From: Halichondria panicea | Taxonomy: Eukaryota > Porifera > Demospongiae > Suberitida > Halichondriidae | Length of the DNA: 64,000 bases | Direction of reading: 5' to 3' | Assembly: GCF_963675165.1 (NCBI RefSeq) | Contig: NC_087390.1 | Coordinates: forward strand, 5,673,250-5,737,249 | In this document: in pieces, positions 3,855 through 52,184 of the stretch | Position numbering within the stretch: the stretch's first letter is position 1 | Layout: each line of letters opens with the position of its first letter | Translations under genes and position numbers: made by a program | Notes under the pieces: generated by a model | The model's input: the letters and a program-made list of their open reading frames with translations, nothing else | What the model was told of the DNA's origin: nothing | Databases searched by the model: none

Positions 3855-5964
3855 TCAACGAGGACTAGAAGTTGGCTGTATACTGCTCAGTTTCTGTGCA
3901 TCGTCATACACAGGTACTAGGTGTCTCATAGTCTGATATTGCAGGGGCCAGTTCATAAGATACGTCCTCGAAATCTGCATCTCCATAAATTGGATTGACG
4001 AATTCTGCATCGTTGAGTGATTCCTGGCTGCCATATATTGGGTTGTCAAACTCAGCTGTTTCTGAAGTGATTGTATTTGTTCTGTTAGTCCTGTTCTCAG
4101 GAATCCATACACTGGGTTGTCTCCAGGTATGTAGGAAATGGTGTCTCCTGTGGAAACAACAGAATGAATGTATTAGCAAATATCCTTTCATGAGCTACTG
4201 AAACATGTTTACTCACCATTCTCAGGTATCTTTGTAAAGAAAGTAAACAGTGTGTGTAGCTACTTCCATGTTAGGTGGACAAACAGCTTACCTTGCGAGT
4301 GAGTGTCTTGAATGGTCTTCCCCTGAACTCTCCTCCGCACACACACCACCACGACCACTATTGGGAGCAGGAGTATCAGCATCAGCACTAGGAGACATCC
4401 CACCATTCCTCCTATCAGATTCCATGGAGCACCACTCAATGCTGCAGGAGGTATATATACAGAGTACATAATTATATAATCAGTTAGAATACCTGCGGAC
4501 AGTGTAGTGTTGCACATCTCTCCAGTGAAGTCAGACTCACATTCACAACTGAACGAGTTGACACCATCCACACACACACCATTTCCACTGCAGTTCCTAT
4601 TCACACAATCATTAATGTTGGTCTCACAATCAGCACCAGTGTAGCCAGGTTCACAGTCACATAGGAACATGTTTACCATGTCAACACAACCACCATTTCC
4701 ACTACAGTTTATTCCATCACATTCATCAATGTCAGTCTGGCAAATAGTATCAGTGTAACCAGGGAAACAATCACAATCAAAGCCGTTAACTCTGTCAGTA
4801 CAGTTGCCTTGTCCACTGCAGTTTACGTTCACACAATCATCAATGTCAATCTCACATCTCTGTCCAGTGTACCCAGGATCACATGAGCAGGTGAAGGAGG
4901 CTATTCCATGAGAGCAGTTACCGTGGCCACTGCACATCCTCTCTATTAGCAAGCACTCATCAATACCATCCTCACAATCAGCACCATTATAACCAGCATT
5001 GCAGACACAGGTGTAAGAGTTGACCTCATCCATACAGACACCATTTCCACTGCAGTTCTGCCCCTCACAATCATCAATGTCCTCACAATCAGCACCAGTA
5101 TAGCCAGCATTGCATACACAAGTGTAGGAATTAAGGCCATTTGTACACGTTCCTCTCCCATTGCAATTTCTGTTGATACAAAAGTTTTGGCGCTCACAGT
5201 TGTCACCGATATAGGGAGGGATACAGTTGCAAGTGAAACTAGTAAGTCCATTCACACATGTTTCTCGTTCACTGCATGTGACAGCATTGGACTCACAGTG
5301 ATTGAAGATATCACAACTTCTTCCAATGTAGAATGGAGCACATAACACAGTAGCACTCAGAGTGATAGAAGGCCCGATAGTTGATGACCTAAATAATGGG
5401 ATTGTTATTCCCACTGAAAGACTCAGAATGTCAAATCGATACTTTACAATAACATCATCTGATGTATAGCTATCAGAATCAACCACTGGTATATAAAGCT
5501 GAGCTCCCTGCAACAACAAAAGACAGTAAATTGAAATGCAATAAAGTCATTACCTCCCAGGCTGTCGATATTCCAGTCAGATTGAATGGATTAGGGAGTC
5601 CAAAAACATTAAGTTGTGAGAAGTCAATTTCTGCCCCATCCCTGATAATACTACTGACTAGAGTAAATCCAGGAGCAGTATTGGGACACACTTCAGCAGT
5701 ACTGGCACGTGGCAACAGGCAGTAGGTGAAGAAGGTGTCACAGTTACTGATTGGATCACAAGATAGACCGTCAGAGTGTATGTTGGATGGATTACTGTAG
5801 GAGACCATCTCCACTTGTAGCACATAGTCTGCAGACACCAGTACACTGAGCTGCAAGCATTGTGACTCTCAACTGCAGCTACTGACTATTATACCACTCA
5901 CCTTCCCCAGCCATAGACACAGGCAGCTCATACACAATACAAGGACACTCATTCTCAGCAGCAT
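3855..5964 (-). CDS. NLL1: Notch-ligand-like EGF receptor, type A, 7 EGF repeats, tail frameshifted
   Basis: Exons 5964-5902, 5850-5554, 5507-4493, 4441-4292, 4147-3855, all with GT-AG introns. Exon 1 is a signal peptide (MLLRMSVLVLC...LGK). Exon 2 and the start of exon 3 form an MNNL/C2-like module: CDTFFTYCLL matches the Notch-ligand CxxFFxxCL signature, followed by FGLPNPFNLTG and a C2-like strand GAQLYIPVVDSD. VLCAPFYIGRSC resembles the first half of a DSL domain. Seven EGF repeats follow, most with the calcium-binding DIDDC/DIDEC start and CxDxxNSYxC. Exon 4 holds the helix (LLVLMLILLLPIVVVVV). In exon 5 one base is missing in the codons for VYGIP, so the tail leaves the NPxY frame after the first NPVY and runs in another open frame to 3855; the ancestral frame would stop at 3904. 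Ectodomain intact; tail function doubtful. Confidence 0.85.
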
Positions 5965-6950
5965 GCAGTAGTTCAACGTAGCTGGGCTAGTGTCTATCTT
6001 GCTTGAGATGTTAAGCAGTTAACAGCTATATTTGTGATGTGATGTGATGATCCGATTCACATGCATCCTGCTAGCATTCTATGCTTATTGTTTGATCTCA
6101 CAAGATATAGAGAAGGAAAGACACTCAAAACAAACTTGTGTCTTCACAGGATGTTCATTCATGTAGCCAGCACATTCATTGATAGCCATAGCTACATGAC
6201 CATTGCATAGTCTCCCACATCACTTAAACTACAAGCAAACACTTGTCACTGAGCTATCAAGAGGTACCAACCTATAAGCTAGATTTAGATCTACGCATTG
6301 TGTTAGAGACAAAAATATGGACCCCAGAGTCTCCCATGAAGCCACTTAAATTACAAGCAATGAGATGAGATAACAAAAGCAGTTGTCATGACATCACAAG
6401 ATGAATTAACACAATACAGATTCGTAATAATAAACACAAGCACTTTTACACACTTACACTAGCTAGTGTCCAGTTAACCGGTTACTAAAGCCATATGATT
6501 CGTCGAGTGTTCCCTAGTAATAGTTACAATGCTATTATCACCATCGGTCAAATTCTCTCGAGTGATATAAACCCTAATTACTATAAAGACTGTATTCCAT
6601 AATTATGTTCTCTACTACATTTTTTGAAATCAGATCATTTTCGTGGAATTGCGATTTTTTTTTAAAGCTTGCAGATTACCTCTCAGGCTTTACTTCTCTT
6701 ACCTAGACAATTCCACCATCTTTAAATTGTCACAATACGTTACCTCGTGGTCACTATAATCATCAGGATGTAGTCAAGCATTACAGTATAACAATGTATA
6801 CTGCTGATTGGAAGGATGTGCACAATTACCATTACAAGCTTCTCACTTGCGTATGACTACACAGAGCTAACAAGATTGATGTAATGGGAAAACTGATCGG
6901 ATCAGTGAAAACTAAGCTCACCAAATAAAAGAATTGTGCACAAATAAAAG
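5965..6950. repeat. 1-kb upstream spacer, near-identical to 8817-9807
   Basis: Upstream region of NLL1 that is almost base-for-base repeated upstream of NLL2. It contains a segment (about 6380-6545) that recurs upstream of NLL4, NLL6 and NLL10, including CAGTTGTCATGACATCACAAG and CCGGTTACTAAAG, so it may be regulatory. Close to the start codon, GTTAACAGCTAT at 6018-6029 is also shared by most NLL genes. No ORF of note. Confidence 0.7.
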
Positions 6951-8816
6951 TCATTGCCTCATGATGACATCATCATAGACATCACTTGTCTGTCCCAGTT
7001 CATCCTCACGCTCGGCAACGGTTGCATAGCTAACATTTACATTTATCATGAGTTTATCATCCTTTTCATCCACACTCTCATACACTGGTGGGAGGGGCTC
7101 CAACACATTACACAGTGAGTAGTCATATTCTAGCTCATGTAGAGGTAGGCCAGTAGCGAGGGTGTTGGTTTGAGTGTTCATCTCACACACACCATACACC
7201 ACGTTGTTCTGACATGGTATGTCATTGTTGGCTGTTCCCCCTCCTCTAACTGCACCTCCATCAACTGTATGGAGAGCATCAAGTTATTGTACACACACAC
7301 TGAGATTGACCTACCATTACATTTAGACGACTCTTGCTTGTTCTTGACGATAATCACTATGACAATAACTATGACTACAATTATTACAATCCCTACCAGC
7401 CCCCCCCCGACCACTCCACCTGCTACAGTAGCTGTTGTATTATCTGATCTCATCTTTGCTGTACAGAAAGCAAAGAATTGTACAGCATATATTCTCAATG
7501 AATCTAAATAAGCTGTTTAATGTGGCAGAGAAGTTAGTGTTTACCTTGTGTCTCCACACTGCACATCTCTCCAGTGAAGCCAGACACACATTCACAACTA
7601 AACGAGTTGACACCATCCACACACACACCATTTCCACTGCAGTTCCTATTCACACAATCATCAATGTTGGTCTCACAATCAGCACCAGTGTAGCCAGGTT
7701 CACAGTCACATAGGAACATGTTCACCATGTCAACACAACCACCATTTCCACTACAGTTTATTGCATCACAATCATCAATGTCAGTCTCACAATCAGCACC
7801 AGTGTAGCCAGGATCACATGAGCAGGTGAAGGAGGCTATTCCATGAGAGCAGTTACCATGGCCACTGCATACCCTCTCCATTAGAAAGCACTCATCAATA
7901 TCATCCTCACAATCAGCACCAGTATAGCCAGCATTGCAGACACAGGTGTAAGAGTTGACCTCATCCATACACAAACCATTTCCACTGCATCTCTGCCCCT
8001 CACAATCATCAATATCCACCTCACAATCAGCACCAGTATAGCCAGCATTGCAGACACAGGTGTAAGAATCAAGGCCGTTTGTACACGTTCCTCGTTCACT
8101 GCATGTGACAGCATTGGAATCACAGTGATTGAAGATGTCACAACTGCTTCCAATGTAAAATGAAGCACATAACACAGTAGCACTCAGAGTGATAGCAGGC
8201 TCGGTACTAGAAAATAGCCTTGTCAATTCCACTGAGAGACTGAGATCAAATCGATACCTTACAATAAGATCATCTGGTGAACTGCCATCAAAGTCAAACA
8301 CTTGTATATAAAACTGAGCTCCCTGCAATAACAAAATTAGGGCAGTAAATTGAAATGCAATAAAGACAGTGATCACAGTACCTCCCAGGTTGTCGATATT
8401 CCAGTTAGATTGAATGGATTAGAGAGTCCAAATACATTAAGTTGTGAGAAGTCAATGTCTGCCCCATTCCTGATAACGTTACTGACTAGAGTAAATCCAG
8501 GAGCAGTATTGGGACACACTTCAGCAGAACTGGCACGTGGCAACAGACAGTAGATGAAGTAGGTGTCACAGTGGTCCCCTCCGCTACATTCTTCACGATT
8601 TATTGAATCACAGCATCGGCCATCAGAGCGTGTGTTGGATGGATTACTGTAGGAGAGCATCTCCACTTGCACCATATAGTCTGCAGACACCAGTACACTG
8701 AGCTGCAAGCATTGGGACTCTCAACTGCAGCTACTGACTATTATACCACTCACCTTCCCCAGCCATAGACACAGGCAGCTCATACACAATACAAGGACAC
8801 TCATTCTCAGCAGCAT
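6951..8816 (-). CDS. NLL2: Notch-ligand-like EGF receptor, type B (ITIM-like tail), 5 EGF repeats
   Basis: Exons 8816-8754, 8702-8382, 8322-7545, 7458-7315, 7249-6951; phases agree and the frame is open throughout (about 534 residues). Signal peptide, MNNL/C2-like module with CDTYFIYCLL, degenerate DSL (CASFYIGSSC), then five EGF repeats, four of them calcium-binding. EGF 1 has CSERGTC, matching the O-fucose consensus CxxxxTC. Exon 4 encodes a Gly-rich start and a long Val/Ile helix, then KNKQESSK. Its glycine run is coded by nine consecutive G bases. Exon 5 is the type B tail: VVYGV, EYDYSL, PPVYESV, the ITIM-like VSYATV and SDVYDDV, ending IMRQ. It lacks NPxY and the -TCV end of type A. The intact member of a very recent duplicate pair with NLL3. 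Confidence 0.88.
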
Positions 8817-9807: not shown

Positions 9808-11672
9808 TCATTGCCTCATGATGACATCATCATAGACATCACTTGTCTGTCCCAGTTCATCCTCACGCTCGGCAACGGTTGCATAGCTAACATTTACATT
9901 TATCATGAGTTTATCATCCTTTTCATCCACACTCTCATACACTGGTGGGAGGGGCTCCAACACATTACACAGTGAGTAGTCATATTCTAGCTCATGTAGA
10001 GGTAGGCCAGTAGCGAGGGTGTTGGTTTGAGTGTTCATCTCACACACACCATACACCACGTTGTTCTGACATGGTATGTCATTGTTGGCTGTTCCCCCTC
10101 CTCTAACTGCACCTCCATCAACTGTATGGAGAGCATCAAGTTATTGTACACACACACTGAGATTGACCTACCATTACATTTAGACGACTCTTGCTTGTTC
10201 TTGACGATAATCACTATGACAATAACTATGACTACAATTATTACAATCCCTACCAGCCCCCCCCGACCACTCCACCTGCTACAGTAGCTGTTGTATTATC
10301 TGATCTCATCTTTGCTGTACAGAAAGCAAAGAATTGTACAGCATATATTCTCAATGAATCTAAATAAGCTGTTTAATGTGGCAGAGAAGTTAGTGTTTAC
10401 CTTGTGTCTCCACACTGCACATCTCTCCAGTGAAGCCAGACACACATTCACAACTAAACGAGTTGACACCATCCACACACACACCATTTCCACTGCAGTT
10501 CCTATTCACACAATCATCAATGTTGGTCTCACAATCAGCACCAGTGTAGCCAGGTTCACAGTCACATAGGAACATGTTCACCATGTCAACACAACCACCA
10601 TTTCCACTACAGTTTATTGCATCACAATCATCAATGTCAGTCTCACAATCAGCACCAGTGTAGCCAGGATCACATGAGCAGGTGAAGGAGGCTATTCCAT
10701 GAGAGCAGTTACCATGGCCACTGCATACCCTCTCCATTAGAAAGCACTCATCAATATCATCCTCACAATCAGCACCAGTATAGCCAGCATTGCAGACACA
10801 GGTGTAAGAGTTGACCTCATCCATACACAAACCATTTCCACTGCATCTCTGCCCCTCACAATCATCAATATCCACCTCACAATCAGCACCAGTATAGCCA
10901 GCATTGCAGACACAGGTGTAAGAATCAAGGCCGTTTGTACACGTTCCTCGTTCACTGCATGTGACAGCATTGGAATCACAGTGATTGAAGATGTCACAAC
11001 TGCTTCCAATGTAAAATGAAGCACATAACACAGTAGCACTCAGAGTGATAGCAGGCTCGGTACTAGAAAATAGCCTTGTCAATTCCACTGAGAGACTGAG
11101 ATCAAATCGATACCTTACAATAAGATCATCTGGTGAACTGCCATCAAAGTCAAACACTTGTATATAAAACTGAGCTCCCTGCAATAACAAAATTAGGGCA
11201 GTAAATTGAAATGCAATAAAGACAGTGATCACAGTACCTCCCAGGTTGTCGATATTCCAGTTAGATTGAATGGATTAGAGAGTCCAAATACATTAAGTTG
11301 TGAGAAGTCAATGTCTGCCCCATTCCTGATAACGTTACTGACTAGAGTAAATCCAGGAGCAGTATTGGGACACACTTCAGCAGAACTGACACGTGGCAAC
11401 AGACAGTAGATGAAGTAGGTGTCACAGTGGTCCCCTCCGCTACATTCTTCACGATTTATTGAATCACAGCATCGGCCATCAGAGCGTGTGTTGGATGGAT
11501 TACTGTAGGAGAGCATCTCCACTTGCACCATATAGTCTGCAGACACCAGTACACTGAGCTGCAAGCATTGGGACTCTCAACTGCAGCTACTGACTATTAT
11601 ACCACTCACCTTCCCCAGCCATAGACACAGGCAGCTCATACACAATACAAGGACACTCATTCTCAGCACCAT
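9808..11672 (-). pseudogene. NLL3: near-identical copy of NLL2 with a frameshift in the membrane exon
   Basis: Exons 11672-11610, 11558-11238, 11178-10401, 10314-10172, 10106-9808. The ectodomain is almost identical to NLL2 (one Ala to Val seen near 11389) with the same five EGF repeats, and the type B tail is intact in sequence. The homopolymer in exon 4 has eight C (plus strand, around 10257-10264) where NLL2 has nine. That shifts the frame inside VVGGG and gives a stop at once, so the spliced product would lack the helix and tail. The result could be a soluble ectodomain, an mRNA removed by decay, or an artefact of homopolymer sequencing or assembly. Exon 1 starts CACCATG on the coding strand side (MVLRM) and differs from NLL2 upstream of the duplication limit. 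Confidence 0.8.
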
Positions 11673-12039: not shown

Positions 12040-13566
12040 TCATTGCCTCATGTTGACATCATCATAGATATCACTAGTCTGTCCCAGTTCATCCTCACGC
12101 TCGGCAACGTTTGCATAGCTAACATTCACATTTATCATGAGTTTCTCATCCTTCTCATCCACACTCCCGTACACTGGTGGGAGGGGCTCCGAAACATTGT
12201 ACAGGGATAGTCATATTTCAGCTCTTGTAGAGAGGAGGGAGGTGGACCAGTAGAGAGGGTGTTGGTTTGAGGTTGAACTGTGTTCATCTCACACACCATA
12301 CACCACGTTGTTCTGACAAGGTATATCATTGTCGGCTGTTCCTCCTCCACTAACTGCAGGGGGAGCAACAAGTTTGTGCACAGTACACACATGCTAAAAT
12401 AGACCTACCGTTGTATTTAGACGACTCTTGCTTGTTTTTGACAATTACTATGACAATGACGATGACAACAATCAGCACAACGCCCACTAGTCCCCCGACC
12501 ACTCCACCTGCTATAGTAGCTGTTGTATCATCTGATCTCATCTCTGCTGTATAGAAAGCAAACATGATGAAAGACTTATACAGCTTTCACAATGAATCAA
12601 AATGAACTGTCAAGTGTGATGTTTACCTTGTGTTTCCACACTGCACATCTCTCCAGTGAAGTCAGACACACATTCACAACTGAACGAGTTGACACCATCC
12701 ACACACACACCATTTCCACTGCAGTTCCTATTCACACAATCATCAATGTTTGTCTCACACTCGGCACCAGTGTAGCCAGGTTCCCAGTATAGCCAGCATT
12801 GCAGACACAGGTGTAGGAATCAAGGCCTTTTGTACACGTTCCTCGATCACTGCATGTGACAGCATTGGAATCACAGTGATCGAAAATCTCACAACTGCTT
12901 CCAGAGTAGAATGGAGCACATAACACAGTAGCACTCAGAGTGATAGCAGGCTCGGTACTAGAAAATAGCCTTGTTGATTCCACTGAGAGACGAGATCAAA
13001 TCGATACCTTACAATATGATCATCTGCATCACTATCAACATCAAACACTGGTATTTAAAGCTGAGCTCCCTGCATTAACAAAATTAGGGCAGTTAATTGA
13101 AATGCAATAAAGACAGTGATCACATTACCTCCCATGCTATCGATATTCCAGTTAGATTGAATGGATTAGGGAGTCCAAATAATATATTAAGTTGTGAGAA
13201 GTCACTGTCTGCCCCATTACCGAATAACGCTACTGACTAGAGTATCTCCGGGCTCACTATTGGGACATCCTCTATCAGTACTGGCACGTGGCATCAGGCA
13301 GTAGGTGAAGTAGGTGTCACAGCAGTCAAATCCGCTACATTCTCAAGACTGCTTGAATCACAACATCGACCATCAGAGCGTATGTTGGATGGATGACTGT
13401 AGGAGACCAGCTCCACTTGTACCACATAGTCTGCAGACACCAGTACACTGAGCTGCAAGCATTGGGACTCTCAACTGCAGCTACTGACTATTATATCACT
13501 CACCTTCCCCAGCCATAGACACAGGCAGCTCATACACAATACAAGGACACTCATTCTCAGCAGCAT
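12040..13566 (-). pseudogene. NLL4: decayed type B Notch-ligand-like receptor
   Basis: All five exon positions can be aligned: 13566-13504, 13452-13129, 13069-12627, 12546-12409, 12353-12040. Lesions seen: two compensating single-base indels in exon 2; TAA in place of a Tyr codon six codons into exon 3 region (LY to L-stop near 13055); a missing base in the DLSLS segment; an internal deletion that fuses the first EGF directly to the last one out of frame (CNAGYTG then NLATLVPS); a CA contraction in exon 5 that stops the tail after VVYGV; and a further missing base at EYDYP. The transmembrane exon itself is still open. Clearly non-functional as a full receptor. Confidence 0.85.
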
Positions 13567-14552: not shown

Positions 14553-16391
14553 TCATACACAGGTACTAGGTGTCTCATAGTCTGATACTGCAGGGGCCAG
14601 TTTATAAGGTACGTCTTCGAAATCTGCATCTCCATAAATTGAATTGATCAGTTCTGCATCGTTGAGTGATTCTTGGCTGCCATATATTGGGTTGTCAAAC
14701 TCAGCTTCTGTTTTTGAAGTGATGGTATTTGTTCTGTTCTCAGGAATCCCATACACTGGGTCGTCTCCTGGAATGTAGGAAATGGTGTCTCCTGTGGAAA
14801 CAACAGAAATAATTATTAGCTCATGAGCATACTGAAAGAACACACTCAGAGATCTTGTTGTAAAGTAAACTACAGTAATTATAGGTATAAGTAAACATGC
14901 AGTGTGTGTAGTATACACTTCCATGTTTAATAGGTTCTATCAAGAAAACACTCTGTAAAGTAAACTACGTAACTAAATAGTGTGTGTAGCTACTTCCATG
15001 TTAGGTACACAAACAACTTACCTTGCGAGTGAGTGTCTTGAATGGTCTTCCCCTGAGCTCTTCTCCGCACACACACCACCACGACCACTATCAGGAGCAG
15101 GAGTATCAGCATCAGCACTAGGAGACCTCCCACCGTTCCTCCTATCAGATCCCCTGGAGCACCACGCAACGCTGAAGGAGGTACACAGAATAAATATCCT
15201 CAGTTATAATTATTAAGTATATTGTAATGCCTGCGGACAGTGTAGTGTTGCACATCTCTCCAGTAAAGTCAGACTCACATTCACAACTGAACGAGTTGAC
15301 ACCATCCACACACACACCATTTCCACTGCAGTTCCTATTCACACAATCATCAATGTTGGTCTCACAATCAGCACCAGTGTAGCCAGGTTCACAGTCACAT
15401 AGGAACATGTTCACCATGTCAACACAACCACCATTTCTACTACAGTTTATTGCATCACAATCATCAATGTCAGTCTCACAATCAGCACCAGTGTAGCCAG
15501 GATCACATGAGCAGGTGAAGGAGGCTATTCCATGAGAGCAGTTACCATGGCCACTGCACACACTCTCCATTAGCAAGCACTCATCAATATCCACCTCACA
15601 ATCAGCACCAGTATAGCCAGTATTGCAGACACAGGTGTAGGAATCAAGGCCGTTTGTACACGTTCCTCGTTCACTGCATGTGACAGCACTGGACTCACAG
15701 TGACTGAAAATCTCACAACTGCTTCCGGAGTAGAATGGAGCACATAGCACAGTAGTATTCACAGTGATAGCAGCAGTCATGGTACTTGATGAGGTAGAAA
15801 ATGTGATTGTTGATCCAACTGAGGGACTTGGATTAATTTGATACTGCACAATAAGATCATCTGGATTGCCATCAGAATCAAACACTTCTACATAAAGCTC
15901 AGCTCCGGCCTGCAATAACAAAAGACAAATTGAAAAACAGTTATCGTTTTAATAATTACCTCCCAGGTTGTTGTTATTCCAGCCAGATTGAACGGATTAG
16001 AGAGTCCAAATACAGTAGGTTGTGAGAAATCAATGTCTGCTCCACCATTCCAGATAACGTTACTGCGTGTAGTAAGTTCATTATTGGAACACTCTGTAGC
16101 AGTACTGGAATGTGGCAACAGGCAGTAGATGAAGTAGGTGTCACAGCGCTCCCCTCCCCTACATGGTACTACACCATTGAATCCCCATGGTGAATCACAA
16201 CATTGACCTTCAGAGACCGTGTTGGATGGATGACTGTAGGAGACCATCTCCACTTGCACCACATAGTCTGCAGACACCAGTACACTGAGCTGTAAGCATT
16301 GGGACTCTCAACTGCAGCTACTGACTATTGTACCACTCACCTTCCCTAGCCATAGACACAGGCAGCTCATACACAATACAAGGACACTCAT
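14553..16391 (-). CDS. NLL5: Notch-ligand-like EGF receptor, type A, 4 EGF repeats
   Basis: Exons 16391-16341, 16289-15960, 15909-15231, 15171-15022, 14791-14553; about 482 residues. The usual first ATG is absent, so the start is the internal one (MSVLVLCMSC), giving a 17-residue first exon. The C2-like module is a divergent sort (AGAELYVEVFDSDG, then INPSPSVG). Four EGF repeats follow: one plain, three calcium-binding. The donor of exon 3 is GC rather than GT (GCAG/GCATT); if used, phase is kept into the membrane exon ALRGAPGDLIGG. The tail has NPIYGSQE plus DDPVYG and NSIYGD, where the first and third NPxY have become DPVY and NSIY, and ends STCV. Complete if the GC donor works. Confidence 0.83.
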
Positions 16392-16735: not shown

Positions 16736-16930
16736 TCATTGCCTTCTGTTGACATCATTATAGATTGTCCCAACCCATCCTCACGCTCGGCAACAGTTGC
16801 ATAGCACACACCTTCTATTTTAAACTCGGACTCATGAAATTCACAAATTTTGGTGTATACGTCCATTTTAGCAAATTTTACTATGAAATTCCAAGTTTCT
16901 TGTATGTCATTGTGGTTACACCTCCACTAA
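16736..16930 (-). pseudogene. Solitary B-tail exon, badly decayed (S1)
   Basis: The acceptor region (TTGTTACTCCCCCTGCAG then TTAGTGGAGG) and the CYATVAERED..LGQS end of the type B tail are recognisable, but the middle is replaced by unrelated sequence and no EGF or membrane exon lies upstream. It sits about 345 bp upstream of NLL5, the same place where other modules hold a whole B gene. Confidence 0.7.
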
Positions 16931-21109: not shown

Positions 21110-22398
<1,289 letters not shown>

Positions 22399-22504
22399 AT
22401 GGGTGTGGGGTGTGGATGTGTGTGTAAAAAGCAAGTCATACTTAACACTTGGTATGGAGAAGTGAGCGCCTCAATCCTCAAAATTGTAATTGCACAATCA
22501 CCAA

Positions 22505-33990: not shown

Positions 33991-35964
33991 TCATTGCCTC
34001 ATGTTGACATCATCATAGATATCACTAGTCTGTCCCAGTTTATCCTCACGCTCGGCAACGGTTGCATAGCTAACATTTACATTTATCATGAGTTTCTCAT
34101 CCTTCTCATCCACACTCCCGTACACTGGTGGGAGGGGCTTCGACACATTATACAGGGGATAGTCATATTCCAGCTCTTGTAGAGAGGAGGGGGGTGGACC
34201 AGTAGGGAGGGTGTTGGTTTGAGGTTGAGCTGTGTTCATCTCACACACACCATACACCACGTTGTTCTGACATTGTATGCCATTGTCGGCTGTTCCTCCT
34301 CCACTAACTGCAGGGGAAGCAACAAGTTTGTGCACAGTACACACACACACTAAGATAGACCTACCGTTGTATTTAGACGACTCTTGCTTGTTTTTGACAA
34401 TAATCACTATGACAATGACTATGATCACAATCCCTACCAGTCCCCCGACTACTCCACCTGCTATAGTAGCTGTTGTATCATCTGATCTCATCTCTGCAGA
34501 ATAGAAAGCAAAGGCTTGTACAGCATTCACTGTCTAATGTGGCAGAGAAGTTAGTGTTTATACCTTGTGTCTCCACACTGCACATCTCTCCAGTGAAGCC
34601 AGACACACATTCACAACTGAACGAGTTGACACCATCCACACACACACCATTTCCACTGCAGTTCCTATTCACACAGTCATCAATGTTGGTCTCACAATCA
34701 GCACCAGTGTAGCCAGGTTCACAGTCACATAGGAACATGTTCACCATATCAACACAACGACCATTTCCACTACAGTTTATTCCATCACATTCATCAGTGT
34801 CAGTCCCACATCTCTGTCCAGTGTAGCCAAGATAACATGAGCAGGTGAAGGAGGCTATTCCATGAGAGCAGTTACCATGGCCACTGCACACCCTCTCCAT
34901 TAGCAAGCACTCATCAATATCCACATCACAATCAGCACCAGTATAGCCAGCATTGCAGACACAGGTGTAAGAATCAAGGTCGTTTGTACACGTTCCTTGG
35001 TCACTGCATGTGACAGCATTGGAATCACAGTGATTAAACATCTCACAAGTGCTTCCAGAGTAGAATGGAGCACATAGCTCAGTAGCATTCAGAGTGATAG
35101 CAGGCTCGGTACTAGAAAATAGCCTTGCCGATTCCATTGAGAGACTGAGATCAAATCGATACCTTACAATAAGATCATCTTCATTACTATCAAAGTCAAA
35201 CACTGTTATATAAAGCTGAGCTCCCTGCATTAACAAAATTTGTTGCCCAGTGAGTGGGCGGATCATAGCAATCCAGTGCTCTGTATATACCATGTTGCAT
35301 CACTACCATAGCAACCAGTGGCGTAGCCAGGGGGTGGCAAAGGGGGAAAATGCCCACACCCCTTTTCTGGATCTCTATTTACCAGTCTTAGCTCTAGCTA
35401 GGTAACAGGCTAGCTACGTTCTTTGTGTCTCTGTTGGTAATTATTGAATTAACAGTAACAGGCTACTACCTAGTTGTGGGAAGAAAACCTAAGAACTTAC
35501 TATGGATACACTAAAAACACATGTCTCAATAACAAACAGATCACATTACCTCCCAGGCTGTCGATATTCCAGTTAGATTGAATGGATTAGGAAGTCCAAA
35601 TACATTAAGTTGTGAGAAATCAATGTCTGCCCCATCAAGTATAACGTTACTGACTAGAGTATCTCCAGGTCCACTATTGGGACATCCTCTATCAGCACTG
35701 GCACGTGGCAACAGACAGTAGGTGAAGTAGGTGTCACAGTTACTGGTTAAATCACAAGCTCGACCGTCAGAGCGTGTGTTGAATGGATGACTGTAGGAGA
35801 GCATCTCCACTTGTACCACATAGTCTGCAGACACCAGTACACTGAGCTGCAAGCATTGTGACTCTCAACTGCAGCTACTGACTATTATACCACTCACCTT
35901 CCCCAGCCATAGACACAGGCAGCTCATACACAATACATGCAAGGACACTCATTCTCAGCAGCAT
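33991..35964 (-). CDS. NLL9: Notch-ligand-like EGF receptor, type B, 4 EGF repeats, signal peptide disrupted
   Basis: Exons 35964-35898, 35846-35550, 35224-34564, 34493-34365, 34307-33991. From exon 2 onward the frame is open: MNNL/C2-like module (CDTYFTYCLL), degenerate DSL CAPFYSGSTC, four EGF repeats (the second with CSCYLGYTG and the third starting TDTDEC), a Val/Ile helix, and a full type B tail with EYDYPL, PPVYGSV, VSYATV and SDIYDDV ending NMRQ. Exon 1 has four extra bases (ATGC around 35937-35940 on the plus strand), so the normal first ATG is out of frame; a later in-frame ATG (MSCLCLWLGK) would give only a short hydrophobic leader. The exon 4 acceptor is shifted by one codon compared with NLL2. 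Signal targeting is therefore uncertain. Confidence 0.8.
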
Positions 35965-37529: not shown

Positions 37530-37846
37530 TTAAGTCATTGCCTCATGCATGTTGACATCATCATAGATATCACTAGTCTGTCCCATGCAGTTTATCTTCA
37601 CGCTCTGCAACGATTGCATAGCATTTACATTTATCATAAGTCTCTTGTCATTCTCATCCACACTCTCATACACTGGTGGGAGGGGCTCCGACACATTCCA
37701 TAGGGGGTAGTCATATTCCAGCTCTTGTAGGGAGGGAGGTGGACCAGTAGCGAGGATGCTAGTTTGAGGTTGAGCTGTGTTCATCTCACACACACCATAC
37801 ACCACGTTGTTCTGGCATGGTATGTCATTGTCGGCTGCTCTACTAA
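37530..37846 (-). pseudogene. Solitary B-tail exon, nearly full length (S3)
   Basis: From a good acceptor (CTCCCCCTGCAG) it codes for a type B tail: NNVVYGVCEMN, ELEYDYPLWNV, PPVYESVDEN. A 4-base deletion after INVN removes the ITIM-like VSYATV and shifts frame, though QTSDIYDDVNM is regained later through another indel. No transmembrane or EGF exon lies upstream; block C follows instead. It could be the last exon of a different gene. Confidence 0.7.
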
Positions 37847-40584: not shown

Positions 40585-42471
40585 TCATACACAGGTACTA
40601 GGTGTCTCATAGTCTGATATTGCAGGGGCCAGTTCATAAGGTACGTCCTCGAAATCTGCATCTCCATAAATTGAATTGACCAGTTCTGCATCGTTGAGTG
40701 ATTCCTGGCTGCCATATATCGGGTTGTCAAACTCTGCTGCTGTTTCTGAAGTGAATGTATTTGTTCTTTTAGTCCTGTTCTCAGGAATCCCATACACTGG
40801 GTTGTCTCCTGGAATATAGGAAATGTTGTCAACTGTGGAAACAACAGAAACATAATTATTAGCTCATGAGCATACTGAAAGAACACACTCAGAGATCTCG
40901 TTGTAAAGTAAACTACAGTAATAGTATAATTATAGGTATAAGTAAGTAAACATGCAGTGTGTGTAGTATACACTTCCATGTTTAATAGGGTCTTACCTTG
41001 CGAGTGAGTGTCTTGAATGGTCTTCCCCTGAGCTCTCCTCCGCACACACACCACCACGACCACTATCAGGAGCAGGAGTATCAGCATCAGCACTAGGAGA
41101 CCTCCCACCATTCCTCCTATCAGATCCCCTGGAGCACCACGCAACACTGCAGGAAGCATATATATATAAAAAGTACATATAATCAGTTAGAATTACCTGC
41201 AGATAGTGTAGTGTTGCACATCTCTCCAGTGAAGTCAGACTCACATTCACAACTGAACGAATTGACACCATCCACACACACACCATTTCCACTGCAGTTC
41301 CTATTCACACAATCATCAATGTTGGTCTCACAATCAGGACCAGTGTAGCCAGGTTCACAGTCACATAGGAACATGTTCACCATGTCAACACAACCACCAT
41401 TTCCATTACAGTTTATTCCATCACAATCATCAATGTCAGTCTCACATCTCTGCCCAGTGTAGCCAGGATCACATGAGCAGGTGAAGGTGGCTATTCCATG
41501 AGAACAGTTACCATGGTCACTGCACACCCTCTCCATTAGCAAGCACTCATCAATATCATCCTCACAATCAGCACCAGTGTAGCCAGCATTACAACCACAG
41601 GTGTAAGAATCAAGGGCGTTTGCACACGTTCCTCTCCCATTGCAATTTCTGTCAAAGCAAAAGTTTTGACGCTCACAGTTTTCACCGATGTAGGGAGGGT
41701 TACAGTTGCAAATGAAACTAGTAAGTCCATTCACACACGTTCCTTGGTTACTGCATGTGACAGCATTGGATCCGGACTCACAGTGATCGAAGATGTCACA
41801 ACTGTTTCCAGAGTAGAATGGAGCACATAGCACAGTAGCTCTCAGAGTGATAGAAGGCCCGGTATTTGATGTACTCATTAATGTGTTTGTGAATCCAACT
41901 GAGAGACTTAAATCAAATCGATATCTTACAATAACATCAACTGGTCCGTTATCATAATCCAGCACTTGTATGTAAAACTGAGCTCCCTGCAGTACAAGAG
42001 ATGGTGCATGGATGGAAATACAATACAAGCAGATCATTACCTCCCAGGCTGTCGTTATTCCAGTCAGATTGAATACACGAGGATGTAAGGAATCAATGTT
42101 ATCCCCATCATCAATCAAGGTACTAACTACAGTAAATCCGGGATCAGTAACTATATTGGGACACCTTGTAGCAGTACTGGTACGTGGCATCAGGCAGTAG
42201 ATGAAGTAGGTGTCACAGCGGTTCCCTCCCATACATGCTACACCATTGTTGGTTGGATCACAACATTGACCATCATCAGAGCGGGTATTGGATGGATGAC
42301 TGTAGGAGACCAGCTCCACTTGTACCACATAGTCTGCAGACACCAGTACACTGAGCTGCAAGCATTGGGACTCTCAACTGCAGCTATACTGACTATTATA
42401 CCACTCACCTTCCCCAGCCATAGACACAGGCAGCTCATACACAATACAAGGACTCTCATTCTCAGCAGCAT
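40585..42471 (-). CDS. NLL10: intact type A Notch-ligand-like receptor, 5 EGF repeats
   Basis: Exons 42471-42409, 42355-42041, 41986-41197, 41146-40997, 40832-40585, all GT-AG with consistent phases; about 521 residues. Signal peptide MLLRMRVLVLC; MNNL/C2-like module with CDTYFIYCLM and GAQFYIQVLDYDNG; degenerate DSL CAPFYSGNSC; five EGF repeats, the first two non-calcium type (RQNFCFDRNCNGRGTC with an O-fucose consensus), the last three calcium-binding. Exon 4: VLRGAPGDLIGG then a Leu/Ile/Val helix and CVRRRAQ stop-transfer. Tail: NPVYG, NPIYGSQE, NSIYGD, VPYELAP, SDYETP and a C-terminal STCV, a class I PDZ ligand. Intron 2 is 54 nt, in frame and free of stops, so retained transcripts would still be translatable. 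Best reference gene of the A type. Confidence 0.92.
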
Positions 42472-42485
42472 GCAGTAGTTCAATA

Positions 42486-43455: not shown

Positions 43456-45547
43456 TCATACACAGGTACTAGGTGTCTCATAGTCTGATACTGCAGGGGC
43501 CAGTTTATAAGGTACGTCTTCAAAATCTGCATCTCCATAAATTGAATTGATCAGTTCTGCATCGTTGAGTGATTCTTGGCTGCCATATATTGGGTTGTCA
43601 AACTCAGCTTCTGTTTTTGAAGTGATGGTGTTTGTTCTGTTCTCAGGAATCCCATACACTGGGTTGTCTCCTGGTATGTAGGAAATGGTGTCTCCTGTGG
43701 ATATATATTAGCTCATGAGCATACTGAAAGAAAACACTCATATGCAGATCTTATATTATGAAGTAAACAACAGTAAATAGGTAAACACAGTGTGTTTGTA
43801 TAGCTACTCCATATGTTAGGTGCATAAACAACTTTAAGTTACCTTGCGAGTGAGCGTCTTGAATGGTCTTTCTCTGAGCTCTCCTCCGCACACACACCAC
43901 CACGACCACTATCAGGAGCAGGAGTATCAGCATCAGCACTAGGAGACCTCCCACCATTCCTCCTATCAGATCCCCTGGAGCACCACCACGCAACGCTGCA
44001 GGAGGTATATATACAGAGTACATATAATCAGTTAGAATACCTGCGGACAGTGTAGTGTTGCACATCTCTCCAGTGAAGTCAGACACACACTCACAACTGA
44101 ACGAGTTGATACCATCCACACACACACCATTTCCACTGCAGTTCCTATTCACACAATCATCAATGTTGGTCTCACAATCAGCACCAGTGTAGCCAGGTTC
44201 ACAGTCACATAGGAACATGTTCACCATGTCAACACAACCACCATTTCCACTACAGTTTATTCCATCACATTCATCAATGTCAGTCTGGCAAATGGTATCA
44301 GTGTAACCAGGGAAACAATCACAATCAAAGCCGTCAACTCTGTCAGTACAGTTGCCTTGTCCACTGCATTTTATGTTCACACAATCATCAATATCAGTCT
44401 CACATCTCTTTCCAGTGTAACCAGGATCACATGAGCAGGTGATGGTGGTTATTCCATGAGAGCAGTTACCATGACCACTGCATACCCTCTCCATTAGCAA
44501 GCACTCATCAATATCCACCTCACAATCAGCACCAGTATAGCCAGCATTGCAGACACAGGTGAAAGAGTTGACATTATCCATACAAACACTATTTTCACTG
44601 CAGCTCTGCCCCTCACAATCATCAATATCATCCTCACAATCAGCACCAGTGTAGCCAGCATTGCAGACACAGGTGTAAGAGTTGACCTCATCCATACAGT
44701 CACCATTTCCACTGCAGCTCTGCCCCTCACAATCATCAATATCCACCTCACAATCAGTACCAGTGTAGCCAACATTGCAGACACACGTGTAAAAATCAAG
44801 GTCGTTTGTACACAATCCTCGGTCACTGCATGTGACAGCATTAGACTCACAGTGATTGAAGATGTCACAATTGCTTCCTGAGTAGAATGGAGCACACAGC
44901 ACAGTAGCCCTCAGAGTGATAACTGCCTCGGTACTTGATGAGGCAGAAAATAACTCTGTCGATTCCATTGAAAGACTAAGGTCAAATCGATATCTTGCAA
45001 TAAGATTATCTGATCTGCTATCAGAATCACTCACTTGTATGTAAAGTTGAGCTCCCTGCAAAGGACAGTAAATTGAAATGCAATAAACACAACAGTATAT
45101 TGAAATGCAGTACCTCCCAGGCTGTCAATATTCCAGTCAGATTGAATGGATTAGGGAGTCCAAATACATTACGTTGTGAGAATTCAATGTCTGCCCCATC
45201 AAGGATAACGCTACTGACTAGAGTATCTCGGGCTTCATTATTGGGACATCTTCTATCAGTACTGGCACGTTGCATCAGGCAGTAGATGAAGTAGGTGTCA
45301 CAGCGCTCCTCTCCGCTACATTCTTCACGACTTCTTGAATCACAACATTGACCACTAGAGCGTGTATTGGATGGATGACTGTAGGAGACCATCTCCACTT
45401 GTACCACATAGTCTGCAGACACCAGTACACTGAGCTGCAAGCATTGGGACTTCAACTGCAGCTACTGACTATTATACCACTCACCTTCCCCAGCCATAGA
45501 CATAGGCAGCTCATACACAATACAAGGACACTCATTCTCAGCAGCAT
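43456..45547 (-). CDS. NLL11: intact type A Notch-ligand-like receptor, 7 EGF repeats
   Basis: Exons 45547-45485, 45434-45114, 45055-44041, 43995-43843, 43694-43456; about 596 residues, all GT-AG and in phase. Signal peptide; MNNL/C2-like module (CDTYFIYCLM, GAQLYIQVSDSD); degenerate DSL CAPFYSGSNC; seven EGF repeats, six of the calcium-binding DIDDC/DIDEC kind, including one found elsewhere only in NLL1 (GFDCDCFPGYTDTICQ). Exon 4 has one extra Gly codon (LRGGAPGD). The tail has NPVYG, NPIYGSQE, NSIYGD and ends STCV. The longest intact member, lying 0.98 kb downstream (on the minus-strand map) of NLL10. Confidence 0.92.
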
Positions 45548-45901: not shown

Positions 45902-46208
45902 TCATTGCCTCATGTTGACATCATCATAGATATCACTAGTCTGTCCCAGTTCATCCTCACGCTCAGCAACGATTGCATAGCATTTACATTTATTATAAGT
46001 CTCTTGTCATTCTCATCCACACTCTCATACACTGGTGGGAGGGGCTCCGACACATTCCACAGGGGGTAGTCATATTCCAGCTCTTGTAGAGAGGAGGGAG
46101 GTGGACCAGTAGGGAGGGTGTTGGTTTGAGGTTGAGCTGTGTTCATCTCACACACACCATACACCACGTTGTTCTGATGTGGTATGTCATTGTCGGCTCC
46201 TCCACTAA
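45902..46208 (-). pseudogene. Solitary B-tail exon (S4)
   Basis: Acceptor and first two thirds intact (NNVVYGVCEMN, ELEYDYPLWNV, PPVYESVDEN). The same 4-base deletion as in S3 removes VSYATV and moves the reading to another frame that stops at 45910. Because S3 and S4 share the deletion they descend from one already damaged copy. Block C follows upstream. Confidence 0.75.
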
Positions 46209-49064
46209 CTGCAGGGGGAGTAACAAGTTAGATATATACACAGTAAGATAGACCTACTTGAATATCAGAGTCACCTGATATAGTCTTATTCCCATGACAT
46301 GACCACACACAGTCCCCTATTTTCCTTTGAGCTTGTTTAATTCACCACCGGCTGGCCGGGCACCCAATTGCTACGTTGTTACGCCTGCATAGCCTGAGTT
46401 GCGGTCGCCCCAGTGTTGTAACCCCCTGTGTGTATAGTGTTGTCGTCTCCTCTGTGGTTGCTCGTGCAGTATTTGGCAAAAAGACTCATCAGAGAGGGTC
46501 TTAAAATGGTTCTTCAAAGGCTCTGTATATGTGAAGCAATAATAATACTGATTCCCAAAGCCAGTTAATGGCTGAAACCAATGAGAACCCATGCACATCC
46601 TGGAAAACCTCCTTATCAGTGTTTGCACACACATGCAGTCTATCCACATTAGGTTCCATTCACTCAATTAGACAGAGTGGCTTGTCGACATGGGAGCTAG
46701 CTTAGTGGAGAGGGAGTCACGGCAACGGCCATTGTACAGTTGGTGCGATGGGTTCTGTTAGGACTGGTGATAGTAGGAGAAGGACTTGCATGCAAACAAA
46801 GTCTGGCTGCATGGTGGAGTTTATTTGAGTTATTGAAGGACTGCTGTGTCAGCATCAATGCTAAATGTACTACATGGCTTATACACACAGAGGGGGTTTG
46901 TAGCGTTTCTCTGTTGTGTGTGCATGTTCCATGAACAATACGTTAATTGAATAGCATAATTAATTATATAACAGGGGAATGCAATCACTATAGCTGTACC
47001 GTATAGCGTGTATATTTTGAGGGTATAAACTTTCGCCTAATGACTGCATGTAAAGGTTTTCGCGGAATAGCACTGACAGTGAGCCTTTTCCTTTTGCAAG
47101 CATGCGATATTAAATGTGTGGGTATAATGTTCACGGTACATCTGCAAAACATTTACACCCTCGAAATATACCCGCTATATCGGTAGACCCAACATTGTAA
47201 TACCGTATGCATGGCGGGAAATGTTCACTGTGGTGCACATATTCTGCTATTAATTGGTACGAGAGCCCTCATAAGATATTTTCGTGGTTGTAATATTCAC
47301 ACGGCATTTGAATGCCAGGAAACCACATCCACCAAGAGCTTCGCATGTAAAATACCGGTGCGTGGGACTTAATGCATTTCTCCCAAATTGTTGTGTTAAC
47401 TGCTCTGCCCTCGAAAAAAACAAAATGTTGCACCCTCACGAACAAATTTTATTGTAGATCCTACAGCACAGCCCATAGATTCTTGTTGTACGCCCTGATA
47501 AATTATGCTCGTTAGCATAATAGGTGTCTAAAGATAATTGGGCATCAATGTTAATTTTTGGTAAAGATCATTACATTAAGTTTTGCATAACGATGTTGTC
47601 ATAGCTGAAGGTTGGATCAGTTCAAGTCAGCAAGATAACACTGAGAACCATGATATTATGCAAAACACATGCAATCATGACTTCCATTTGACAACAGGGT
47701 AGGCCTAGCCTCGATCCCAGGCCGCACTTCCCACTTCACTTAGGGAAGTGGGTAATCATGCTTTTTTTCCACCCATTATTCTATTCTTTAATTCTTACCT
47801 TTTATTCTCATAAAAAATCCGATTATTCTCTCATAAAAAATCTGAAAATGTGTCATAATAATTACAGACAAAATTAAATGTAGACATAACACAGCACACA
47901 ACTGACACACGACATAAAATTAATACATGAGGATGTCCCAAAAAGTGATGTCGTTTTAAAGACACCCACGGAAACTAACTATAGTATGGTTAAGAGTGCA
48001 ATATCATTACAGGATTAATAGCACGAGTAACAAACAATGGGCAAAGCCTCTAATTGCATACACAAGGCGAAAATAAGCCCCGATTACAATTACTTGTTTG
48101 ATGATGTGCAATAAATAATTACTCGCTTACGATGTGCAATTACAGCCTTGATGGCATGCAATCACATGACACTGGTCCAGATATGATACCATGCATGGAT
48201 ATCTATTATGTGTTGGATTTTAACCTGAGGGTAGTTCTATGTATTCCGGAGGGCATATCGCAGCTTGTACTTGACAAACCATATTTACAACATGATCGAG
48301 TAGGGACTCATTCACTTCTCGGAATAGTAGATCTATATATAATTATTGAATTCACTTCCATTCTTAACTTTCACTCTGGAAGGTACTTCTATATCTCCCC
48401 ACTGCACAGTTAATTGTACCATTGTACTTGTTAATACAGTCTTCCATTATTCTACATAGAAGATCTTATTGTTCACTTGTTGTAAGAGTCTGCGTCTTGT
48501 ACATGTTCATCTTGAACATAGCTAAATGAAAAAAAGCAACAGTTGAACGCTTGCTGCTTTTCATTTTAGCTTCTTGCATGAGGGTACGGTGAGGTGAAAG
48601 AGAACAATTGATTACACGTCACCATGCATGGAGCAATATAAAGTCAGTACTGATAGATGATGAACTCAATATTCTCCTATTTCAACATTCCACACAACAG
48701 CCTCAGACTTCATGCACTCTGAAACTGTATTCATGGTATAATTATAACCTATAGTATAAAATGTACAACCTCGGACTTAACTATGAAGAACTTACGTTGA
48801 CAATGTCATACACTTGTAGTATGCCCTTCTTTTGATTGCAAGCTCTTACAAATTTACAGGCTACTGCATGTAGATAGGCTCATCGAAATGTTTAAACCAC
48901 CGAATCATAATAATTATACAGAAGCCCCACTCTGCATGCATTGATAGGGACTCATTCAGTTCTAGGAATTCATAACTTCCACTCTGGAAGGTATTTTCGA
49001 GAAGGTGACACTGTACTTCCCACAGTCCGAGCTGACTACTAGTGACACTATAATACTTGAAGAA
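46209..49064. other. Block C copy 4, repeats, and segment paralogous to 18685-20696
   Basis: Block C to about 46800; two MITE-like elements at 46995-47340; an unrelated insertion at 47490-47660 followed by 47660-47697, which is inverted relative to the other modules; a MITE-like element at 47985-48135; an imperfect hairpin at 48520-48571 absent from the paralogue; the piggyBac empty site near 48893. No gene before 49065. Confidence 0.5.
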
Positions 49065-50498: not shown

Positions 50499-52184
50499 TC
50501 ATACACATGTAGGTACTACAAGTGTCATAGTGTCAGGGGACAGTTCATAAGGTATGTCCTCGAAATCTGCATTTCCATAAATTGGATTGACGAATTCTGC
50601 ATCGTTGAGTGATTCCTGGCTGCCATATATAGGGTTGTCAAACTCAGCTGTTTCTGAAGTGATGGTGTTTGTTCTGTTAGTCCTGCTCTTAGGAATCCCA
50701 TGCACTGGATTGTCTCCTGGAATGTGGAACTTTTATTATTATTATAGCTCATGAGCATACTGAAAAAAACATTCTTGTAAAGTAAACTACAGTAAATAGG
50801 TAAACAGTACGTATGTGTAGCTACTTCCATGTTAGGTGCAAAAATAGCTTACCTTGAAATTGAGTGTCTTGAATGGTCTTCCCCTGAGCTCTCCTCCGCA
50901 CACACACCACCACGACCACTATCAGGAGCAGGAGTATCAGCATCAGCACTAGGAGACCTCCCACCATTCCTCCTATCAGATCCCCTAGAGCACCACGCAA
51001 CGCTGCAAGAGATATACAGAAGGAATATCATCAGTTAGAATACATATCTCTCCAGTGTAGCCAGATCGACCCACATTCACAACTGAACGAGTTGACATGC
51101 ATGCACCATCCACACACACACACACCATTTCCATTGCAGTTCCTACAATCATCAATGTCAGTCTCACATCTCTGTCCAGTGTACCCAGGATCACATGAGC
51201 AGGTGAAGGTTGCTATTCCTTGAGAGCAGTTGCCGTGACCACTGCACACCCTCTCCATTAGCAAGCACTCATCAATATCATCCTCACAATCAGCACCAGT
51301 GTAGCCAGCATTGCATACACAAGTGTAGGAATCAAGGCCGTTTGTACACGTTCCTCTCCCATTGCAATTTCTGTCAAAGCAAAAGTTTTGACGCTCACAG
51401 TTTGCACCGATATAGGGAGGGTTACAGTTGCAAGTGAAACTAGTAAATCCATTGATACACGTTCCTCGTTCATTGCATGTGACAGCATTGGATCTGGACT
51501 CACAGTGATTGAAGATGTCACAACTGTTTCCAGAGTAGAGTGGAGCACATAACACAGTAGCTCTCAGAGTGATAGAAGGCCCGGTATTTGATGTACTCAT
51601 TAATGTGTTAGTCAATCCAACTGAAAGACTTAGATCAAATCGATATCTTACAATAACATCAACTGGTCCATTATCATAATCCAGCACTTGTATGTAAAAC
51701 TGAGCTCCCTGCAGTACAAGAGATGGTGCATGAATTGAAATACAAACAGTGATCATTACCTCCCAGGCTGTCGTTATTCCAGTCAGATTGAATATACGAG
51801 GTTGTAAGGAATCAATGTTATCCCCATCATTAATCAAGTTACTAACTACAGTAAATCCGGGATCAGTAACTATATTGGGACACCCTGTAGCAGTACTGGT
51901 ACGTGGCATCAGGCAGTAGATGAAGTAGGTGTCACAGCGGTCCTGTCCCATACATGATACACCATTGTTGGTTGAATCACAACATTGACCATCAGAGCGT
52001 GTGTTGGATGGATGACTGTAGGAGACCAGCTCCACTTGCACCACATAGTCTGCAGACACCAGTACACTGAGCTGCAAGCATTGGGACTCTCAACTGCAAC
52101 TACTGACTATTATACACTCACCTTCCCCAGCCATAGACACAGGCAGCTCATACACAATACAAGGACTCTCATTCTCAGCAGCAT
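50499..52184 (-). pseudogene. NLL12: type A receptor with degenerate last EGF, copy of NLL6
   Basis: Exons 52184-52122, 52071-51760, 51708-51044, 51002-50853, 50716-50499. Signal peptide, MNNL/C2-like module (CDTYFIYCLM) and three EGF repeats are open. The fourth EGF is damaged but still open (NGVCVCGWCMHVNSF) and runs to the donor in phase 2 rather than 1, so exon 4 would be read outside the helix frame. Exon 5 has the same shortened acceptor and NPVH as NLL6, but keeps NPIYGSQE and NPIYGN and ends PTCV. Intron 2 (51 nt) is in frame and stop-free. Either a pseudogene or a soluble ectodomain with a Ser/Asp-rich end. Confidence 0.75.

What the first reader, a model, noticed from the sequence alone, without database searches (positions are those of the whole stretch)
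3855..52184. Twelve-gene array of Notch-ligand-like receptors with two interchangeable signalling tails
One ectodomain plan (MNNL/C2-like, degenerate DSL, EGF repeats) is joined to two unrelated transmembrane/tail exon pairs: A with NPxY motifs and a PDZ ligand, B with an ITIM-like motif. Both joins use the same phase-1 junction, so tails can be swapped by recombination. This resembles paired activating/inhibitory receptor clusters, but built on a Notch-ligand scaffold. I know of no description of such a cluster. A recognition or adhesion role is inference.
Basis: partly seen in the sequence, partly recalled or inferred. Interest (0 to 1): 0.9.

Follow-up and report, generated by a model that had tools for sequence, protein, structure and literature searches.

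The report
Sponge receptor array with swappable tails
A sponge genome carries tandem arrays of cell-surface proteins built on the front end of Notch ligands, and recombination has repeatedly exchanged two unrelated tails among them, which makes them candidate recognition receptors although no function has been tested.

Summary
Twelve minus-strand units lie at 3,907-52,184; 8 end in tail A, 4 in tail B, with phase-1 junctions for both. Three have clean ORFs, two need a relaxed assumption, seven are damaged.

The ectodomain is a Notch-ligand C2/MNNL domain. DSL stays below Pfam's cut-off, so these are relatives of Delta/Jagged, not members. The genome looks like a demosponge's and holds about 42 close exon-2 copies on seven contigs.

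Tail exchange is visible. A 98.9%-identical duplication ends in tail B in one copy and tail A in the other, parting at the last EGF. Tail type needs at least 9 changes on the ectodomain tree. Tail B is grafted onto a divergent ectodomain. TM and tail types agree in 35 of 35 units.

dN/dS is 0.93 in exon 2 and 0.39-0.41 in tails. Repeated NPxY in tail A exceeds chance; the tail-B ITIM alone does not (30% of shuffles). I read this as a paired-receptor-like recognition family; function is inferred.

The parts
3907..5964 (-). Unit N1, tail A: exons 5964-5902, 5850-5554, 5507-4493, 4441-4292, 4147-; tail frameshifted
6951..8816 (-). Unit N2, tail B, intact: exons 8816-8754, 8702-8382, 8322-7545, 7458-7315, 7264-6951
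9811..11672 (-). Unit N3, tail B, near-copy of N2 with a 1-base loss in the TM exon
12043..13566 (-). Unit N4, tail B, pseudogene (stops in exons 2, 3 and the tail)
14556..16391 (-). Unit N5, tail A, open only with a GC donor after exon 3 and the second ATG
24242..25922 (-). Unit N6, tail A, damaged (scrambled last EGF, TM out of frame)
26946..28770 (-). Unit N7, tail A, damaged (TGA in exon 2, altered donor)
31083..33614 (-). Unit N8, tail A, damaged (donor altered by extra bases; 827-base intron 2)
33991..35964 (-). Unit N9, tail B: exons 2-5 at 35846-35550, 35224-34564, 34493-34365, 34307-33991; open from a downstream ATG in exon 1
40585..42471 (-). Unit N10, tail A, intact: exons 42471-42409, 42355-42041, 41986-41197, 41146-40997, 40832-40585
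43456..45547 (-). Unit N11, tail A, intact: exons 45547-45485, 45434-45114, 45055-44041, 43995-43843, 43694-43456
50502..52184 (-). Unit N12, tail A, damaged (scrambled last EGF, TM out of frame)
16739..16860 (-). Orphan tail-B relic
29145..29307 (-). Orphan tail-B relic
37542..37835 (-). Orphan tail-B exon, frameshifted over the ITIM
45905..46209 (-). Orphan tail-B exon, frameshifted
52578..52850 (-). Orphan tail-B exon with stops

Best explanation
This is part of a lineage-specific family of type I membrane receptors in what looks like a demosponge. Their outer part is a Notch-ligand C2 (MNNL) domain, a degraded DSL remnant and EGF repeats.

Shown from sequence: two unrelated TM-plus-tail cassettes sit behind one ectodomain plan. 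Each cassette travels as a block from the last EGF to the 3' flank. The pattern fits exchange by non-allelic homologous recombination or conversion in the near-identical membrane-proximal EGF-coding DNA. Five-prime flanks are alike in A and B units, so shared regulation is likely.

Inferred: the variable loops of the MNNL domain bind ligands on other cells. Tail A (repeated NPxY, in part a C-terminal PDZ motif) recruits PTB and PDZ proteins for uptake, adhesion or positive signalling. Tail B (a conserved YATV ITIM-like site and other YxxV sites) recruits SH2 proteins, perhaps a phosphatase. Swapping the tail would give one binding specificity the other output, as in paired receptors. Allorecognition or immune recognition is the most likely use.
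For: MNNL: 29 genome hits, 3 of the 12 window units over Pfam's cut-off; MNNL is the only Pfam family found for exon 2, in 9 of 11 members. Fold search: ranks 1-23 are entries of Jagged, Delta-like or Serrate C2-DSL structures, best E 4.5e-8. Recent swap on C6, 7,493 bp at 98.9% with different tails. At least 9 tail changes on the ectodomain tree of 35 units, 5 forced by well-supported branches. TM type equals tail type in 35 of 35 units where both were found. Tail B on divergent ectodomains at C15 and C17, with the end of the C15 ectodomain (about 150 bases) 92-95% identical to N9/N10 DNA. dN/dS: exon 2 0.93, C2 part 0.70, tail A 0.39, tail B 0.41. Mean A-B identity of 5' flanks 0.785 against 0.402 for 3' flanks.
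Against: No expression, splicing, protein or population data. 7 of 12 window units are damaged. Exon-2 dN/dS does not exceed 1 (z -0.43), so relaxed constraint fits as well as diversification. One ITIM is expected in 30% of shuffled B tails. No ITAM seen in tail A. MNNL was not listed for three full-length models nor for the joined N9 piece. The fold model is poor (mean pLDDT 48.5), and its Notch-ligand matches have TM-scores of only 0.34-0.42 by query length. Closeness of the C6 copies could in part be an assembly effect.
Confidence: 0.6

Rival explanations
1. They are extra Delta-type ligands that act on the sponge's own Notch receptor in development; the two tails only set ligand trafficking.
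For: MNNL/C2 plus EGF plan; LNR Notch-repeat matches on C10 and C17; Amphimedon Deltas have tails with predicted PDZ, PTB and SH2 sites (PMC3482393 passages).
Against: DSL scores 8.7-14.8 bits in 4 of 4 window segments (N2, N9, N10, N11) and is not listed for the divergent C15 segment, against 60.3 bits for a canonical gene of this genome and a cut-off of 24.2. The PRDD...GHY stretch of that gene is absent. MNNL and DSL hits lie together at other loci. About 42 close copies against five Deltas in Amphimedon.
Confidence: 0.12
2. Adhesion or scavenger/uptake receptors without opposing outputs; A and B differ in endocytosis and anchoring.
For: Repeated NPxY and C-terminal TCV in tail A; 2 of 18 B tails also carry NPxY.
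Against: Does not by itself explain why B keeps a site with a canonical ITIM in 16 of 18 copies, nor the contrast of variable exon 2 and constrained tails.
Confidence: 0.2
3. A neutrally expanding and decaying tandem family; tail exchange is a by-product of unequal crossing-over at EGF repeats and has no selected role.
For: 7 of 12 units damaged; five orphan tail-B relics; exon-2 dN/dS near 1; near-identical membrane-proximal EGF DNA in 7 of 12 units.
Against: Both tails are constrained (dN/dS 0.39, z -2.55; 0.41, z -3.67), and both are kept on several contigs.
Confidence: 0.2
4. The near-identical copies are haplotypes placed side by side by the assembler.
For: The C6 blocks are 98.9% identical and about 33 kb apart.
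Against: Tail type is also mixed among clearly divergent copies; the C15 chimera does not depend on near-identical copies. If allelic, the pair would still show a tail exchange.
Confidence: 0.08

Closest known systems
DSL ligands (Delta/Jagged), in particular the five Amphimedon Deltas (PMC3482393, passages read)
   Same: Signal peptide, MNNL/C2 domain, EGF repeats, one TM, tails with PDZ and PTB motifs
   Different: No DSL match above threshold; about 42 close copies; two tail cassettes exchanged among ectodomains
Mammalian paired receptors, e.g. CEACAM, Siglec-11/16, CD300A/C (search listing and abstract starts only)
   Same: Similar ectodomains with different tails, recombination or conversion between members
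   Different: Not Ig; the ITIM is weak evidence; the other tail carries NPxY instead of an ITAM or an adaptor-binding TM charge
Botryllus fester co-receptors (53 loci; ITIM, hemITAM or core motifs; motif exchange by alternative splicing) and Hydractinia Alr candidates (PMC12065747, passages read)
   Same: Large clustered invertebrate families with tyrosine-motif tails and exchangeable signalling ends
   Different: Botryllus co-receptors have Ig/sushi ectodomains; here C2 and EGF; here the exchange is in germline DNA; no link to allorecognition has been tested
Sponge SRCR expansion (PMC10855680, title and abstract start only)
   Same: Massive expansion of a surface-receptor family in a sponge
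   Different: Unrelated domain; whether it has two tails was not looked at

Membership tests
DSL ligand (Delta/Jagged) | MNNL / C2 N-terminal domain | tested here: met
   sequence scores modest (19.9 to 25.8 bits for the window units reported, cut-off 22.5), not listed for some longer pieces; the fold model is weak but its first 23 matches are Notch-ligand entries
DSL ligand (Delta/Jagged) | DSL domain | tested here: not met
   none of 26 genome hits lies at a family locus; 4 window segments score 8.7-14.8 bits against the 24.2 cut-off; control 60.3
DSL ligand (Delta/Jagged) | EGF repeats between DSL and TM | tested here: met
   5 to 7 EGF (PF00008) stretches in N2, N10, N11
DSL ligand (Delta/Jagged) | Binds and activates Notch | not testable with these tools
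   needs binding and reporter assays
Paired activating/inhibitory receptors | Closely similar ectodomains on different tails | tested here: met
Paired activating/inhibitory receptors | ITIM in the inhibitory member | tested here: inconclusive
   16 of 18 near-complete B tails, but 30% of shuffles have one
Paired activating/inhibitory receptors | ITAM, or a charged TM residue for an ITAM adaptor, in the other member | tested here: not met
   read by eye from the A tails and TM exons: no ITAM and no charged residue in the hydrophobic core
Paired activating/inhibitory receptors | Opposing functions | not testable with these tools
   no functional data
Allorecognition receptor | High polymorphism linked to fusion or rejection | not testable with these tools
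   one genome only

The most novel reading that the evidence does not exclude
Sponges have a germline-diversified recognition system built from Notch-ligand parts. Ectodomain specificity and signalling output are separate modules, re-paired by recombination in the EGF-coding DNA. A neighbouring gene with two ITAM-like motifs may supply the activating arm. It would be a paired-receptor-type allorecognition or immune system that arose independently of immunoglobulin domains.
Probability: 0.25. Interest if true: 0.95.

Novelty: new variant of a known kind. Interest (0 to 1): 0.78.

Why it matters
Sponges reject grafts with high specificity, and a study of grafting in Amphimedon states that an underlying polymorphic genetic system is indicated (PMC5450542, passages). 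A multi-copy receptor family with variable outer domains, constrained tails and observed tail exchange gives testable candidates. It would also show that the ectodomain/tail modularity of paired receptors can arise on a Notch-ligand scaffold, and that a developmental ligand was turned into a receptor repertoire by decay of its Notch-binding DSL domain.

Tried and rejected
Pfam scan of three full-length models did not list MNNL; exon 2 alone did, so I put the first result down to HMMER's filters, which is a guess. For the joined exon-2/3 piece of N9 (protein 8) MNNL was again not listed, only an unrelated family and weak C2 (E 0.21); this counts against the strength of the sequence match. A single-sequence PDB search matched EGF modules, mainly of Notch and clotting factors. 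That one gene splices to A or B alternatively was considered because orphan B exons follow some A units; no TM-B match was found at the window orphans, all five are broken or partial, and the C6 remnants looked at are fragments, so I read them as scars. That tail A derives from a canonical sponge Delta tail was looked at in seven loci: the one clear TM exon of a DSL gene was unlike it and no NPxY was flagged, but most tails lie outside the stretches held, so this is open. Positive selection over exon 2 was not shown (z -0.43); windows at five of 22 sampled positions, in two stretches, have pN over 1.5 times pS, untested. A smaller window-only set gave exon-2 dN/dS of 1.29 (A-A), 0.68 (B-B) and 0.97 (A-B) and C2-part values of 0.65, 1.40 and 0.66 (one last-EGF row there was mis-anchored, so its last-EGF figures are not used). 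In one search, distinct stop-free copies entered: exon 2 28 of 32, C2 part 29 of 32, tail A 15 of 15, tail B 8 of 11. In one search, 35 units entered; the very divergent C15 and C17 units and those without an assigned tail were left out, two labels (C6_3989659 A, C9_6579501 B) were set by hand across gaps in the held DNA, and one row (C12_5770137) was short. In that tree the labels are slightly clustered: 25 to 37 of 500 shuffles needed as few changes. The random control held overlapping pieces (maximum 1.0), so only its mean is used. In one search the two matches L072 and L075 were not looked at, and the reversed control pattern gave 2 matches.
Full report
ORGANISM AND SETTING. The window is contig C14:5,673,250-5,737,249 of a 131-Mb, 39-contig genome. 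A motif search gave 8 matches (reversed control 2). Six, read by eye, encode cathepsin-like stretches with Ser where the catalytic Cys is expected (CGASYAF or CGSSYAF, then LSEQNIIDCS or similar), the mark of silicateins (recalled), on C2, C6 and C13; the other two were not examined. I take the animal to be a spicule-forming demosponge; the species is not known.

ANATOMY. Twelve units on the minus strand share a signal-peptide exon, an MNNL exon, a long exon with the second half of the C2 domain, a DSL remnant and EGF repeats, a TM exon and a tail exon. Eight end in A, four in B. Exon 4 is symmetric, phase 1 on both sides, in A and B. Three units are clean (N2, N10, N11), N5 and N9 need a relaxed assumption, seven are damaged. 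Five tail-B exons or relics stand alone.

WHAT THE ECTODOMAIN IS. Pfam MNNL gives 29 hits in the genome, three of them window units (N2, N3, N7) at 25.3-25.8 bits against a cut-off of 22.5. In a scan of 11 family exon-2 sequences, MNNL was the only family, matched by 9 (best E 6e-8); N10 itself scores 19.9, below cut-off. Longer pieces did not list it. A model of 252 residues of N10, from the start of exon 2, has low confidence (mean pLDDT 48.5; block means 46-75 for residues 11-100 and 55-75 for 121-180, lower elsewhere) and contains read-through of intron 2. In PDB its first 23 matches are entries of Notch-ligand C2-DSL structures (E 4.5e-8 to 1e-5, TM-score by query 0.34-0.42), and C2 domains follow. 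DSL is different: segments of N2, N9, N10 and N11 score 8.7-14.8 bits against 24.2, and DSL is not listed for the divergent C15 segment, while a canonical gene of the same genome scores 60.3. The genome-wide DSL list of 26 has no member of this family. The remnant keeps C-x8-C with FYxG but not PRDD..GHY.

GENOME-WIDE FAMILY. An exon-2 query gave 61 matches, of which 42 are close copies or parts of them, on C5, C6, C9, C10, C12, C14 and C15 (lower bounds). Tail A matched 30 places and tail B 49, fragments included. MNNL and DSL hits lie together at other loci, and LNR Notch repeats were found on C10 and C17.

TAIL EXCHANGE. (1) On C6, blocks 3,977,728-3,985,214 and 4,011,042-4,018,522 are 98.9% identical over 7,493 bp. 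The last unit of one ends in tail B and of the other in tail A; they align from the 5' flank to the last codons of the last EGF, with one EGF-sized indel (114 bases), and then part. (2) On a tree of 35 ectodomains (18 A, 17 B) the label needs 9 changes, 5 forced by well-supported branches; shuffled labels need 11.9 on average, and 25 to 37 of 500 shuffles are as low. (3) TM type equals tail type in 35 of 35 units where both were found (17 A, 18 B). (4) At C15:40,560-42,260 an ectodomain 36% identical in exon 2 carries an open tail B; about 150 bases at the end of its ectodomain are 92-95% identical to N9 and N10 on C14, while upstream DNA aligns to these units only in short, mostly EGF pieces. 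At C17 an MNNL protein with no EGF repeat seen carries tail B at the same phase, the tail end broken. (5) Some C6 A units have the 3' end of tail B a few hundred bases after tail A. (6) Five-prime flanks (-200 to -1) are alike in A-A, B-B and A-B pairs (means 0.758, 0.751, 0.785); three-prime flanks only within a type (0.622, 0.628, against 0.402 between; random mean 0.371). The moved block therefore runs from the last EGF to beyond the stop codon. The likely site of recombination is the EGF DNA: a 300-base stretch of N8 is 96-98% identical in N2, N3, N5, N7, N9 and N10, A and B alike; N1 and N11 have 87%, N4 62%, and N6 and N12 are not in that repeat family.

SELECTION. dN/dS: exon 2 0.93 (28 copies), C2 part 0.70 (29), tail A 0.39 (15), tail B 0.41 (8). 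Two stretches of exon 2 have pN over 1.5 times pS. This fits a variable recognition face on constrained tails, but relaxed constraint on exon 2 is not excluded.

MOTIFS. All 18 A tails counted have NPxY, 16 have two or more, 10 end in TCV within the matched piece. Of 18 B tails (two orphans and three with stops included), 16 have a canonical ITIM at the conserved site, the two others being a frameshifted orphan and GNYATV (the printed pattern hit another site first in two copies, read by eye). Shuffles: two or more NPxY in 3 of 10,000, an ITIM in 3,013 of 10,000. In 12 stop-free B tails the ITIM columns average 0.92 conservation against 0.80 for the tail.

MECHANISM. Shown: anatomy, traces of exchange, constraint. 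Inferred: ligand binding by the MNNL loops, PTB/PDZ output of A, SH2 output of B, shared expression, recognition role.

LITERATURE. The listings showed no description of such a family; subscription papers and most preprints are not covered, and most listed papers were not opened. Amphimedon has five Deltas, all with DSL (PMC3482393, passages). A term search of the main text of the Amphimedon graft study found no Notch, Delta, EGF, receptor or ITIM (PMC5450542). The Botryllus review describes ITIM and hemITAM co-receptors and such motifs on Hydractinia candidates (PMC12065747, passages). MNNL and DSL also occur together in a choanoflagellate protein (PMC6040629, passages). PMC2770060 and PMC4810162 were seen in passages.

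Noticed in passing
window 56520-58126, minus strand: Two predicted exons (58126-57997, 57307-56520) join without a stop and encode a proline-rich N-terminal region with two ITAM-like motifs (YSSI-x7-YVEI and YSAL-x8-YASL) before a TM segment. A 117-aa piece of the second exon has one match in the genome, itself. ITAM patterns arise in 113 and 13 of 10,000 shuffles of the two pieces. It lies about 4.3 kb from the array: a possible activating partner.
   Followed up: partly
window 1033-1584 and 3128-3487, minus strand: Two related ORFs (MTQATDYTKLT...) that look like N-terminal parts of type II membrane proteins; no Pfam match over cut-off.
   Followed up: partly
window 59334-60266, plus strand: 310-aa open frame with a hydrophobic segment and tyrosine motifs; no Pfam match at E up to 0.1.
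   Followed up: partly
G000:C12:1.815-1.870 Mb: A second array of MNNL proteins with EGF repeats, no DSL hit there, and a different TM exon in the two loci looked at.
   Followed up: partly
G000:C4:5457205-5457588 and 5594023-5594406: Three DSL domains in a row within frames of 275 aa, in two places; resembles the DSL-only genes reported for cnidarians (PMC2770060, passages).
   Followed up: no
G000:C2:656915-667884, C6:200201-204450, C13:25289: Six silicatein-type exons, used here to place the organism.
   Followed up: partly
window about 22240-22450: Long (CA)n/(TG)n microsatellite between N5 and N6, seen as repeat-coding frames.
   Followed up: no
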